From assembly GCF_011043775.1 (NCBI RefSeq), contig NZ_JAAKXY010000004.1, positions 62,001-126,000 of the forward strand: a stretch of DNA of 64,000 nucleotides, written 5' to 3'. The position numbers and the translations under genes were made by a program. Positions 22,395 through 25,432 of this stretch are shown here, one piece after another (position 1 is the first letter of the stretch; every line of letters begins with the position of its first letter). Source of the stretch: Natronolimnobius sp. AArcel1 (GTDB lineage: Archaea > Halobacteriota > Halobacteria > Halobacteriales > Natrialbaceae). The notes under the pieces were generated by a model. The model was not told where the DNA came from. It did no database searches and was given only the letters and a program-made list of their open reading frames with translations.

Positions 22395-23696
22395 ATGAAC
22401 ATCGATATCGGCAATGCACTTGCCACCGTTGCGTCGCCGGGCGTCTCGAAGGAGAGCCTCGAGCGACTGGACGCACAGGTCGCGGACGCACACGAACGCA
22501 TCGAGCAGGGGATGGCAAATTCCGAACACGGTTACGAGGCACTGAACCTCCCCGAGAACGTCGATCCCGACGACATCCGCCAGGCCGTCAAACCGGTCGC
22601 GGACGCCGACGCGCTCATCACGGTCGGCATTGGCGGCAGCGCACTCGGCGCGGCGACACTCACGGACGCACTCGCCGACGAGAGCGACACCGAGGCCATC
22701 TACCTCGACAACGTCGACCCCGACTGGGTCTCGAGTCACCTCGAGCGACTGGATCTCGAGAGCGCGGCGATCAACGTGGTCTCGCGCTCGGGAACCACCG
22801 CGGAGACGCTCGCGAACTTTCTGGTCGTCCGCGAGGCGTTCGAGGACGCTGGCGTCGACTGGACCGAACGCACAATCGTAACGACCGGCGAGTCCGGCCC
22901 GCTTCGGGACCTCTCGGATCGCCACGATCTCCCCTCGCTGAAAGTGCCGGACGGCGTTCCTGGCCGTTTTTCGGCGCTCTCTGCTGTGGGACTGGTCGCC
23001 GCCGAAGTCTGTGGCCACGATGTTGAGGCCTTGCTCGAGGGCGCTGCTGCCGAGCGTGAGACGCTTACTGGCTCGTTGTTTGACTGTCCGGCCTACGCTT
23101 ACGGCGCGACGAGTTACGCACTCGACCAACGCGGCGCGGCGATCAACGCGATGATGCCCTACGCGGAGTCACTCGAGACCTCGGCGGAGTGGTTCGCCCA
23201 GCTCTGGGCCGAGAGCCTCGGCAAAGACGACCTCGGGCAGACGCCCGCTCGAGCGCTCGGCGTGACTGACCAGCACTCCCAACTCCAACTCTACCGCGCG
23301 GGACCGCGAGACAAACTCGTCACCTTCGTCGTGCCTCAGGAGCAGTCGGATCGAGCGATTCCCGACACCGAGGTCGAGGACCTTGCCTATCTCGGCGATT
23401 CGACGCTCGGCGAACTGCTCTCCGCGGAGTTCGAGGCGACCGAAGCGAGCCTCGCCGCTGCAGGCCGACCGAACGTCCGAATCGAACTCGAGCGCGTCGA
23501 CGAGTACGAACTCGGCGGGTTTCTGTACGCGATGGAAGCGGCCTGCGTGCTCGCGGGCGAACTGTACGGCGTCAACACGTTCGAACAGCCGGCCGTCGAA
23601 TGGGCGAAAAAGGCGACTCGAGGGCTACTCGGCGGCGGCGACTTCGAAGAGGCTGACGCGGTTGCGGAGAAGACGGAACTGCGCATCGAGCGATGA
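22395..23696 (+). CDS. pgi: Glucose-6-phosphate isomerase
   Basis: Interconverts glucose 6-phosphate and fructose 6-phosphate, used in haloarchaea mainly for gluconeogenesis and sugar supply. The 433 residues contain the sugar-phosphate-binding VGIGGSALGA loop (about 77-86), the SRSGTTAET segment, and the C-terminal KDDLGQTPARALGVTDQHSQ block with the catalytic Glu/His surroundings. It is shorter than bacterial Pgi, as usual for archaeal forms of the superfamily. The TGA stop abuts the end of the downstream insertion sequence. Confidence 0.95.
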   Translation: MNIDIGNALATVASPGVSKESLERLDAQVADAHERIEQGMANSEHGYEALNLPENVDPDDIRQAVKPVADADALITVGIGGSALGAATLTDALADESDTEAIYLDNVDPDWVSSHLERLDLESAAINVVSRSGTTAETLANFLVVREAFEDAGVDWTERTIVTTGESGPLRDLSDRHDLPSLKVPDGVPGRFSALSAVGLVAAEVCGHDVEALLEGAAAERETLTGSLFDCPAYAYGATSYALDQRGAAINAMMPYAESLETSAEWFAQLWAESLGKDDLGQTPARALGVTDQHSQLQLYRAGPRDKLVTFVVPQEQSDRAIPDTEVEDLAYLGDSTLGELLSAEFEATEASLAAAGRPNVRIELERVDEYELGGFLYAMEAACVLAGELYGVNTFEQPAVEWAKKATRGLLGGGDFEEADAVAEKTELRIER

Positions 23697-23702
23697 CATC
23701 CT

Positions 23703-23722
23703 CCCCGGCGCGAACGCCGGGG
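23703..23722 (-). terminator. IS right-end hairpin, probable guide-RNA scaffold end or terminator
   Basis: ccccggcg (23703-23710) pairs perfectly with cgccgggg (23715-23722) around a cgaa loop. It lies 22 nt downstream of the tnpB stop and 7 nt downstream of the pgi stop on the other strand. In IS605 elements, reRNA/omega RNA covers the tnpB 3' end and the right end, so this hairpin is likely part of it. It may also stop pgi transcription. Confidence 0.6.
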
Positions 23723-23743
23723 TTTCCTCCGTGGGAGTCTCGG

Positions 23744-25090
23744 CTATGCCAATTCCCCGGAGGCAATATTCCCGTCACGGTGGACGGTACTCGGGTCTGT
23801 GCGCTGTTCTTTGGGACTTTCGTGAGGATATGGTATTCCCGACCAATCATGGTCGTCCCACTCGAACCGCACGGGCCGTGCCATCAGCCCGACTGCCTGC
23901 TCTGCGTGCCGTCTCAGGAACGTTTCCGACGCAGTGAGATCGGCGTGCCCCTCGAACCCGCACGGGCAGGTGAGCGTGTCCTGATGCCGTGTGGTGCGGT
24001 CTGTGCCGCCGCACTGCGGGCACTCTTGACTGGTCCACGCTTCCGACCGCACTTCGACCGTGATACCGTATTCTTCGGCGGAACACGCCAACCGTTTGGT
24101 GAATTTCTTGAACGCCCAGAAGTTGTGCGTCTTGGCGTTTGTCTCGACCGACCAGTGCGTGTCCAGCACGTCAGTCAAGCCACCGATATACACCGTGTCC
24201 ACACCGCCCTTGTACAGACGTTCCAGCAGATCACGACACAGTGCCTCTTCGGCGTGGTCGCGGCGGCGGGTTCGCTTACGGTACAGCCGCCGGATACGCT
24301 TGCTACTGTATTGGCCTTCTTCGAGTTTCGACTGTAACCGGGCGATTTCTCGCGTCGTCTCGCGGAACCGCTGGAACAACTCACGGCCCTCATACAGGTA
24401 TTGCTCGCCAGTCGTTGTGGTACAGGCAACGAGATTGTTTGCACCAATATCCAGAGCGGCCTTTTTATCGGCCAGTGGAGTGTCCCGCGCATCGTCAGAA
24501 ACAGTCACGGGTTGCGAAGCTCGGAAGGTGCTGTCTGTCTCGTCGTACCACAAGTCTAACCGGCCCTGTTTCTCGTACTCGGACCAATTCGGGTTGCCAG
24601 CGATTTCCAGCCGGAGACGCCCGGTGTGGCCGTATTGGTCTTTCAATTCGCTCCCGACCAGTATTTCGAGCCGGGAACAGTCTCCCCATTTGATGGTGTA
24701 CGACGTGTTGCGGATGACGGTATGCAGTTTTCGTCCGTCGTCTTTGTTGCCCCAGAACCCCGGTGGCTCCGGGTGTTCAGTGACTGACGTATTCGACTCG
24801 TCGTGATACTTGTTCTTCGTATCGAAGAACCCACGCCATGCTTCGGAGTTCTTCCGTATCACTTGTTGGGCGGTGGACGCACCGAGAACGCCTTTGTACG
24901 TGCCTTCGAGTCGGCCAGTATCGGTGTCCCACACGTCCTCGTCTTCGTAGCCGTCTTCGTCGTTGTACCGCATGAGGCGTTCGTAGTTAACCTCGTTCCA
25001 GAGAGCGGCGGAAGCGTCCAACAAGTCTAGTAGCAGTTGCTCTCCCTTGTTGGAGAGCGGGCGCACGGCGAACGTGTTGGTGCGCTTCAC
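23744..25090 (-). CDS. tnpB: TnpB-like RNA-guided nuclease homologue (IS1341 type)
   Basis: A 448-residue protein of the TnpB family, ancestors of Cas12, which cut DNA guided by RNA from the element end. The RuvC-I Asp is in ALDIGANN (D214). The zinc finger CPQC...CPCG spans 357-377, and RuvC-III Asp is in GHADLTASE (D384). At the usual RuvC-II Glu position (normally I-x-x-E-D-L) the sequence is VYIGGLTDV, with glycine 303. E350 in [11 protein letters not shown] may substitute, as in reported rearranged TnpB sites; otherwise the protein may bind but not cut. It is divergent from the RHH gene. Confidence 0.88.
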
Positions 25091-25132
25091 GACAACAGAT
25101 TATTATACTTTTGGTCTTAAAGTCTTTTCGTC

Positions 25133-25276
25133 ATGCGACCCAACATCGATATTTCACACACGCTCGGTGGCCGAGTCAAAGACCACGCAGAAGCGAACGA
25201 TTTGGACCTTTCGGAAGCCTATACTGAGGTTTTAGAAGCAGGTCTGGAAGCAACGGAGACTCAGGATCAGCAGTAG
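25133..25276 (+). CDS. Mini ribbon-helix-helix protein linked to the IS element
   Basis: A 47-residue protein (ATG 25133, TAG 25274-25276) starting MRPNIDISHTLGG. A short strand (PNIDISHTL) followed by two helices (GRVKDHAEANDLDLSEAYTEVLEAGLEA) fits a CopG/Arc-type ribbon-helix-helix DNA binder. It is divergent from tnpB, with starts only 42 nt apart, so it probably binds the shared AT-rich promoter (tattatactt, 25101-25110) and may control tnpB. Too small for confident family assignment. Confidence 0.65.
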   Translation: MRPNIDISHTLGGRVKDHAEANDLDLSEAYTEVLEAGLEATETQDQQ

Positions 25277-25283
25277 CAGGACG

Positions 25284-25396
25284 AGGTTCCCACCGGAGCT
25301 TACGCGATTCACGCCCGTTGAGCAAACCGTAGGTTTGCGATGCCCATCAGAACGCTATGCGTTCTGAGGACGCCGTGAACGGTGGGACTCTCTCGC
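25284..25396. repeat. Nested hairpins at the IS left side
   Basis: Two adjacent perfect hairpins: gcaaacc/ggtttgc (25322-25328 and 25332-25338, loop gta) and cagaacgc/gcgttctg (25348-25355 and 25359-25366, loop tat). They lie inside a wider dyad where tcccaccg (about 25288) faces cggtggga (about 25380). Such structures suit the single-stranded ends of IS200/IS605 elements, but a structured RNA is an alternative. Confidence 0.6.
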
Positions 25397-25432
25397 TGTT
25401 GAAAGGTAGTCCGCTCGTTCGAAGTCAGTCTG

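What the first reader, a model, noticed from the sequence alone, without database searches (positions are those of the whole stretch)
23744..25090. TnpB with glycine at the RuvC-II glutamate position
Seen: D214 and D384 fit RuvC-I and RuvC-III, but the RuvC-II segment is [13 protein letters not shown] where active TnpB has I-x-x-E-D-L. Known: some TnpBs have a rearranged catalytic site with a glutamate placed elsewhere. Inference: E350 ([11 protein letters not shown]) may take over, or the protein is an inactive, possibly repurposed, RNA-guided binder.
Basis: partly seen in the sequence, partly recalled or inferred. Interest (0 to 1): 0.62.

Follow-up and report, generated by a model that had tools for sequence, protein, structure and literature searches.

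The report
TnpB with relocated catalytic glutamate
This haloarchaeal mobile element encodes an RNA-guided DNA-cutting protein (TnpB) whose third catalytic acid sits at an alternative, already described position, so it is very probably an ordinary active enzyme of a known subgroup; less expected is a small companion gene, probably a DNA-binding regulator, next to it.

Summary
The gene lies on the minus strand (25090 to 23744). G303 stands where canonical TnpB has its RuvC-II glutamate, and D214, E350 and D384 are present. It is not an oddity of this copy: among 103 distinct haloarchaeal relatives G303 is invariant (103 of 103) and E350 is present in every one that covers it (102 of 102), with synonymous codons varying at both sites.

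E350 lies exactly six residues before the zinc finger, the published alternative position (Ealt) of Fanzors and a TnpB clade. In 133 TnpBs outside the close family, canonical and alternative glutamates never co-occur and are never both absent. So E350 very probably completes an active site; the 'inactive, repurposed' alternative is not supported.

The element (1713 bp, 23693-25405) is inserted at the pgi stop codon after CTAC. It has a covarying omega RNA at its right end, and its guide matches the empty site in a same-genus genome.

The TnpB is a new member of a known kind. Less expected is a conserved divergent 47-aa ribbon-helix-helix-like gene inside the element. That family was found beside TnpB at 23 of 30 places, in two arrangements; I found no report of it in the library searched.

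The parts
23744..25090 (-). tnpB, 448 aa, GTG start; alternative-glutamate (Ealt) TnpB
   Evidence: Pfam OrfB_IS605 1.2e-29 and Cas12f1-like_TNB 9.2e-14; NCBIfam guided_TnpB 7.8e-44, above its cut-off
24449..24451 (-). codon of D214, RuvC-I aspartate
   Evidence: D in 102 of 103
24182..24184 (-). codon of G303 at the canonical RuvC-II glutamate position
   Evidence: G in 103 of 103, four synonymous codons used
24041..24043 (-). codon of E350, alternative RuvC-II glutamate
   Evidence: E in 102 of 103, GAA 81 and GAG 21
23960..24022 (-). zinc finger C357-x2-C360 ... C375-x-C377 (TNB domain)
23939..23941 (-). codon of D384, RuvC-III aspartate (HADLTAS)
   Evidence: D in 101 of 103, 2 gaps
23693..23817 (-). 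omega RNA scaffold and right end of the element (stretch aligned; exact 5' end not known), ending GGGGAGGATGTCAT
   Evidence: alignment A3 of 43 sequences: 19 pairs, 99.0% of cells paired, 83 cells changed on both sides, 0 of 500 shuffles reach the covariation score; sharp loss of conservation after GTCA[T/A]
23673..23692 (-). first 20 bases of the guide (flanking DNA, 3' end of pgi)
   Evidence: begins where conservation ends; matches the empty site with one mismatch in the 14 guide bases searched
23693..25405 (-). whole insertion, 1713 bp, no target duplication; boundary ambiguous by 1 base
   Evidence: empty site in the same-genus genome G001, locus L126; end alignments
25406..25409 (-). 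CTAC, putative TAM / target site next to the left end
   Evidence: present in the empty site; CTA[C/T] in most relatives
25133..25276 (+). divergent 47-aa gene inside the element, ribbon-helix-helix-like
   Evidence: 136 of 136 pairs with pN below pS; model pLDDT 81.5 with two helices
22395..23696 (+). pgi (glucose-6-phosphate isomerase, name from knowledge) whose last base of the Arg codon and stop codon are supplied by the element

Best explanation
It is an active-type, RNA-guided TnpB nuclease of the alternative-glutamate (Ealt) clade, carried by a TnpA-less IS200/IS605-type (IS1341-type) element inserted at the 3' end of pgi. D214, E350 and D384 form the RuvC active site: G303 replaces the canonical RuvC-II glutamate and E350, between the last RuvC strand and the zinc finger, supplies the acid instead. 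The 3' end of the tnpB transcript is the omega RNA scaffold; the guide is the adjoining pgi sequence. The complex would cut the empty pgi allele (CTAC + guide), favouring retention of the element, while the occupied allele is safe because the element separates CTAC from the guide match. Shown: sequence, conservation, covariation of the RNA, empty site. Inferred: active-site geometry, cleavage, maintenance role. The divergent 47-aa gene is probably a DNA-binding autoregulator (inferred).
For: E350 is E in every covered relative and G303 is invariant, with synonymous codon changes at both. E350 fits the published Ealt spacing, E + six residues + CxxC. Outside the close family, 124 of 133 TnpBs have E at RuvC-II and none at 350, 9 of 133 the reverse, 0 both, 0 neither. 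The Ealt proteins fall on one side of a branch in a 128-protein tree, SH-aLRT 93. The model has strand 344-349 ending directly before E350, the place named for the catalytic E of Fanzor in PMC11423790. SpuFz1 E541, D383 and D606 bind metal (PMC10432273). One RuvC-II-rearranged TnpB (clade RII-r5) cleaves DNA (PMC10278001). Purifying selection on tnpB: 8 of 8 comparisons with dN/dS below 0.25. Covarying omega RNA. Empty site with CTAC + guide.
Against: No activity data. The published RegEx for Ealt TnpBs does not match this protein, because its second zinc knuckle is CxC. Which published rearranged clade (RII-r3 or RII-r5) it belongs to was not settled. The complementarity count is not independent of ancestry, and the viral set was confirmed with a canonical-glutamate query. 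Only one empty-site genome was found, and no TnpA lies in the element.
Confidence: 0.86

Rival explanations
1. Nuclease-dead, RNA-guided DNA binder or repressor (like TldR or Cas12m2): the lost RuvC-II glutamate abolishes cleavage and E350 is structural.
For: The canonical glutamate is missing. Binder-only relatives of TnpB and Cas12 are known (Cas12m2, start of abstract in the listing; TldR, start of abstract in the listing).
Against: The alternative triad is kept in every covered relative except one with D214 changed. Guides differ between most loci, unlike a fixed regulatory target. The element looks mobile, with an empty site. A rearranged RuvC-II TnpB has been shown active.
Confidence: 0.08
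2. Decaying insertion-sequence remnant with no function.
For: Many haloarchaeal tnpB copies are broken; 13 of 103 distinct relatives are fragments or contain stops, and published counts show many disrupted tnpB in Haloquadratum (PMC3119063).
Against: This copy is full length; dN/dS against its nearest comparison (L045) is about 0.23, against the other seven 0.12-0.18; both ends and the omega RNA are intact.
Confidence: 0.04
3. Misread alignment: an ordinary TnpB with a canonical glutamate nearby in RuvC-II.
For: 64 of 103 relatives have an E within positions 298-310.
Against: That E is nearly always at position 310 and is not invariant; the window has D there. The PDB alignments put G303 on the catalytic E.
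Confidence: 0.02

Closest known systems
Ealt TnpBs with D-hydrophobic-G RuvC-I motif (PMC10711439, Nucleic Acids Res. 2023; sections 10 and 23 and passages read)
   Same: D-I-G motif, E six residues before the CxxC zinc finger, no RuvC-II glutamate, separate clade from Ecan TnpBs
   Different: Second zinc knuckle is CxC, so their published RegEx would not have collected this protein; the word archaea does not occur in the main text
TnpB clades with RuvC-II rearrangement, RII-r3 and RII-r5 (PMC10278001, CRISPR J. 2023; passages read)
   Same: RuvC-II glutamate not at the usual position; one RII-r5 ortholog active on dsDNA
   Different: Assignment of this protein to either clade not tested
Fanzor (SpuFz1, PMC10432273 abstract and passages; GtFz1, PMC11423790 section 7 and passages; mimivirus Fanzor2, PDB 9b0l)
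   Same: Catalytic glutamate on the loop before the TNB zinc finger; Foldseek match to 9b0l, E 1.9e-8
   Different: Fanzors have DPG in RuvC-I and are eukaryotic or viral; this protein has DIG
IS1341-type (TnpA-less) IS605 elements of haloarchaea with sense-overlapping RNAs (PMC3119063, PMC8303175, PMC12558985; passages read)
   Same: tnpB without tnpA, structured RNA overlapping the 3' end, few close copies per genome
   Different: Those papers do not treat the active site in the passages read; Rfam RF02656 and RF02657 did not match here

Membership tests
TnpB (guided_TnpB, NF040570) | Profile match above curated cut-off | tested here: met
   150.5 bits against 100; Pfam PF01385 and PF07282 above cut-off
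TnpB (guided_TnpB, NF040570) | RuvC fold with zinc-finger TNB domain | tested here: met
   Foldseek to AsCas12f, ISFba1 TnpB 8iaz and Fanzor2 9b0l, from a low-confidence model
TnpB (guided_TnpB, NF040570) | Omega RNA at the element's right end with guide outside | tested here: met
   Covarying structure and sharp conservation boundary; transcription not tested
TnpB (guided_TnpB, NF040570) | RNA-guided DNA cleavage | not testable with these tools
   needs bench work
Canonical (Ecan) TnpB | Glutamate in RuvC-II about 50 residues before the zinc finger | tested here: not met
   G303 in 103 of 103
Ealt TnpB clade | Glutamate six residues before the first CxxC | tested here: met
   E350, six residues, C357; 102 of 103
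Ealt TnpB clade | Published RegEx D{P}G...ExxxxxxCxxC...CxxC...D | tested here: not met
   No match because of CxC at 375-377; matches if CxC is allowed. This is a search filter of the authors, not their definition of Ealt
Ealt TnpB clade | Phylogenetic separation from Ecan | tested here: met
   17 Ealt against 111 Ecan proteins split by one branch, SH-aLRT 93, long branches flagged
Fanzor / pro-Fanzor | DPG motif in RuvC-I | tested here: not met
   DIG; position 215 is I, V, L or M in 103 of 103
TldR (exapted, nuclease-dead TnpB) | Degraded RuvC triad and fixed regulatory guide (recalled) | tested here: not met
   Alternative triad complete; guides vary between most loci

The most novel reading that the evidence does not exclude
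Haloarchaeal TnpB elements carry a dedicated ribbon-helix-helix protein in two arrangements: divergent from Ealt tnpB (as here) and co-directional, overlapping the start of Ecan tnpB. It represses or tunes the tnpB/omega RNA promoter, so that the nuclease is kept in check until the element has newly arrived or has been lost from one allele.
Probability: 0.45. Interest if true: 0.55.

Novelty: new member of a known kind. Interest (0 to 1): 0.36.

Why it matters
It shows by comparison of many genomes that the missing RuvC-II glutamate is a fixed, compensated property of a large haloarchaeal TnpB clade. Such proteins should therefore not be annotated as dead, and motif searches that require CxxC twice will miss many of them. 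The element gives a clean natural test: an occupied site, an empty site, a guide and a putative TAM in two members of one genus. The small companion gene suggests that some TnpB elements bring their own transcriptional control, which can be tested directly.

Tried and rejected
Structure prediction of the TnpB from 45 haloarchaeal sequences gave only pLDDT 57.8; no coordinates were found in the Python box, so superposition on ISDra2 TnpB was not possible. The second and last structure job went to the small companion protein, not to a deeper TnpB alignment. Foldseek of that small model gave no significant single hit (best E 1.4); the ribbon-helix-helix reading rests on the many such folds in the list (named from knowledge: CdbA, CopG, MatP, SvtR, Arc, VapB and MazE antitoxins) and is inferred. 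HMM searches of its alignment against the PDB found nothing significant; Pfam gave only weak Tra_M matches in 15 of 27 members (best 0.0032) and MatP_C in 1. Viral-contig scans with A1, L014 and L007 gave 1, 0 and 0 relatives. Rfam: only sub-threshold HgcC and CRISPR-DR29 matches in the window stretch. In one search the strand of loci was mishandled; its output was discarded and redone. One search parsed only 36 of 59 loci; one search replaced it (57 of 59). In one search the regular expression reads the alternative column one residue early for Y-T-S types; none becomes E by this. A last statistic asked of the tree program failed; the table printed before it gave the count. Considered and rejected: canonical glutamate hidden nearby; pseudogene; exapted repressor.

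Full report
What is there. The finding's interval holds one open frame of 448 aa on the minus strand. Its families are OrfB_IS605 and Cas12f1-like_TNB in Pfam and guided_TnpB in NCBIfam, all above cut-off. PDB sequence alignments put G303 opposite the glutamate of the E-D-L motif of AsCas12f1 and E350 opposite a proline.

Conservation. I collected 110 loci that encode the protein or a close relative: the window's own, 29 from unnamed relatives and 80 from named genomes. Some genomes appear in both collections. They give 103 distinct proteins. G303 is glycine in 103 of 103. E350 is E in 102 and a gap in one fragment (L044). D214 is D in 102 of 103, D384 is D in 101 with 2 gaps. The neighbouring 304 varies (G 51, D 44, A 5, R, E and Y 1 each). 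Codons vary synonymously: E350 GAA 81, GAG 21; G303 GGC 57, GGT 37, GGG 8, GGA 1. In 8 of 8 comparisons of the window gene with relatives dN/dS lies between about 0.12 and 0.23. 13 of 103 are fragments or contain a stop.

Complementarity. Outside this family I classified three sets. Of 70 distinct viral-contig TnpBs, 70 have E at RuvC-II and none has E at the 350 column; they come from 80 loci, of which 77 gave a frame without stops. Of 8 other TnpBs of the window's own genome, 6 have G or S at RuvC-II with E at 350, and 2 have E with P. Of 59 TnpBs taken by the Pfam TNB domain from relatives and the phylum, 57 could be parsed and 55 have both columns: 52 have E and no E, 3 have G and E; the 2 without a RuvC-II column are one E and one not. 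Together 124 plus 9 of 133, with none having both and none neither. These counts are not independent of ancestry, and the viral set was confirmed with a canonical-type query. In a tree of 128 proteins the 17 Ealt rows are one side of a branch, SH-aLRT 93, with long branches flagged by the program.

Known counterpart. PMC10711439 (sections 10 and 23 and passages read) defines Ecan and Ealt. Ealt lies six residues before the zinc finger, in Fanzors and in a D-hydrophobic-G TnpB clade. E350 is followed by six residues and C357 and fits this exactly. Its RegEx would miss the window protein because the second knuckle is C-x-C. PMC10278001 (passages) describes RuvC-II-rearranged clades and reports one active ortholog. 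PMC11423790 (section 7 and passages) places the catalytic E on the loop between the fifth strand and the TNB domain. PMC10432273 (abstract and passages) reports metal bound by E541, D383, N385 and D606 of SpuFz1. Papers that I recall on this topic (Altae-Tran 2023, Jiang 2023, Wiegand 2024) were not held.

Structure. The model of the TnpB is weak (pLDDT 57.8, pTM 0.45), but strand 344-349 ends directly before E350, and Foldseek finds AsCas12f, ISFba1 TnpB and mimivirus Fanzor2.

The element. Alignments of flanks show conservation up to GGAGGATGTCA[T/A] on the right, then none (98 of 110 loci carry the motif with at most one mismatch). A left-end motif was found in 49 loci, preceded by CTA[C/T] in most of them; at least one (L113) looks spurious. 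In the only other genome of the genus searched, pgi ends GAGCGG TAG GGCCGCTCG, where the window has the element between the two halves. The insertion is 23693-25405, next to CTAC (25406-25409), with one base of ambiguity; the element supplies the last base of the Arg codon and the TGA of pgi. The joined sequence CTAC + guide is absent from the window's genome at up to 2 mismatches. In the same-genus genome it is present once with 1 mismatch, at the empty site, and once elsewhere with 2 mismatches that alter CTAC; the backward-read control gave 2+1 and 1+1 matches in the two genomes, so a 2-mismatch hit means little. The element has no TnpA; the genome has 6 Y1 transposase matches elsewhere.

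The RNA. 43 aligned right ends share a structure of 19 pairs: 99.0% of cells pair, 83 cells show changes on both sides, and 0 of 500 shuffles reach the covariation score; slid controls pair in 37-55% of cells. The number of pairs with changes on both sides (8) is reached by 85 of 500 shuffles, so it alone says little. The terminal hairpin carries most of the covariation. Of 98 right ends, 82 remained after dropping duplicates and those with a long inserted hairpin, and 43 of these 82 were aligned.

The companion gene. On the plus strand 25133-25276, inside the element, lies a 47-aa frame. A similar frame is found divergently upstream in 36 of 103 loci examined, all with E below 1e-12; 6 further listed hits with E of 0.004 or more are not counted. 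All 136 pairs of 17 coding sequences have pN below pS, medians 0.126 and 0.557. A profile of 27 members finds 30 places in 61 genomes. 23 of 30 are beside a TnpB: 14 divergent from this TnpB family, 9 co-directional with other, canonical-glutamate TnpBs. In two of these 9 read in full the small gene overlaps tnpB by 17 bases (L261) or 4 bases (L269). 7 of 30 show no TnpB in the stretch held, one of them on a short contig. The 14 are expected from how the profile was made; the 9 are not. The model (pLDDT 81.5) is an extended N-terminus and two helices, and the fold list is rich in ribbon-helix-helix proteins without a significant single hit. Searches of the held library for TnpB with ribbon-helix-helix (3 papers), with CopG (1 paper) and with regulator words showed no report of such a companion; the 3 papers and the one were checked at the matching passages, the listings only by title and start of abstract.

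Verdict. The TnpB is a new member of a known kind. The companion gene is the less expected part and deserves its own look.

Noticed in passing
window 25133-25276 (+); L242-L271: 47-aa ribbon-helix-helix-like gene family next to TnpB at 23 of 30 places, in two orientations.
   Followed up: partly
L059, L060, L063, L070 (guide start 3893): Four loci from different haloarchaea carry the same TnpB type with an identical guide start (ACTCCACGCTTCTACG) and 94-95% identical flanks over kilobases, with a ~114-bp repeat of the guide-side sequence about 280 bases downstream: either a shared mobile replicon or a fixed guide.
   Followed up: partly
window 23681-23776 (-); G000:C8:80703-80875, G000:C5:130074-130180, G115:C1:1078344-1078495: Sub-threshold matches to Rfam HgcC (RF00062) fall at the 3' ends of several TnpB genes (read from coordinates), which suggests that HgcC may be related to an omega RNA family.
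   Followed up: partly
L257:568-1683 (-): A match to the companion protein forms the N-terminal part of a 371-aa frame with no TnpB nearby.
   Followed up: no
L049, L071, L092, L019 upstream of tnpB: The companion gene lies about 265-270 bases from tnpB instead of about 45, leaving room for another short gene between them.
   Followed up: no
G000, whole genome: The genome holds 24 matches to this TnpB at E <= 0.001, among them both canonical and alternative-glutamate types, and 33 TNB-domain matches.
   Followed up: partly
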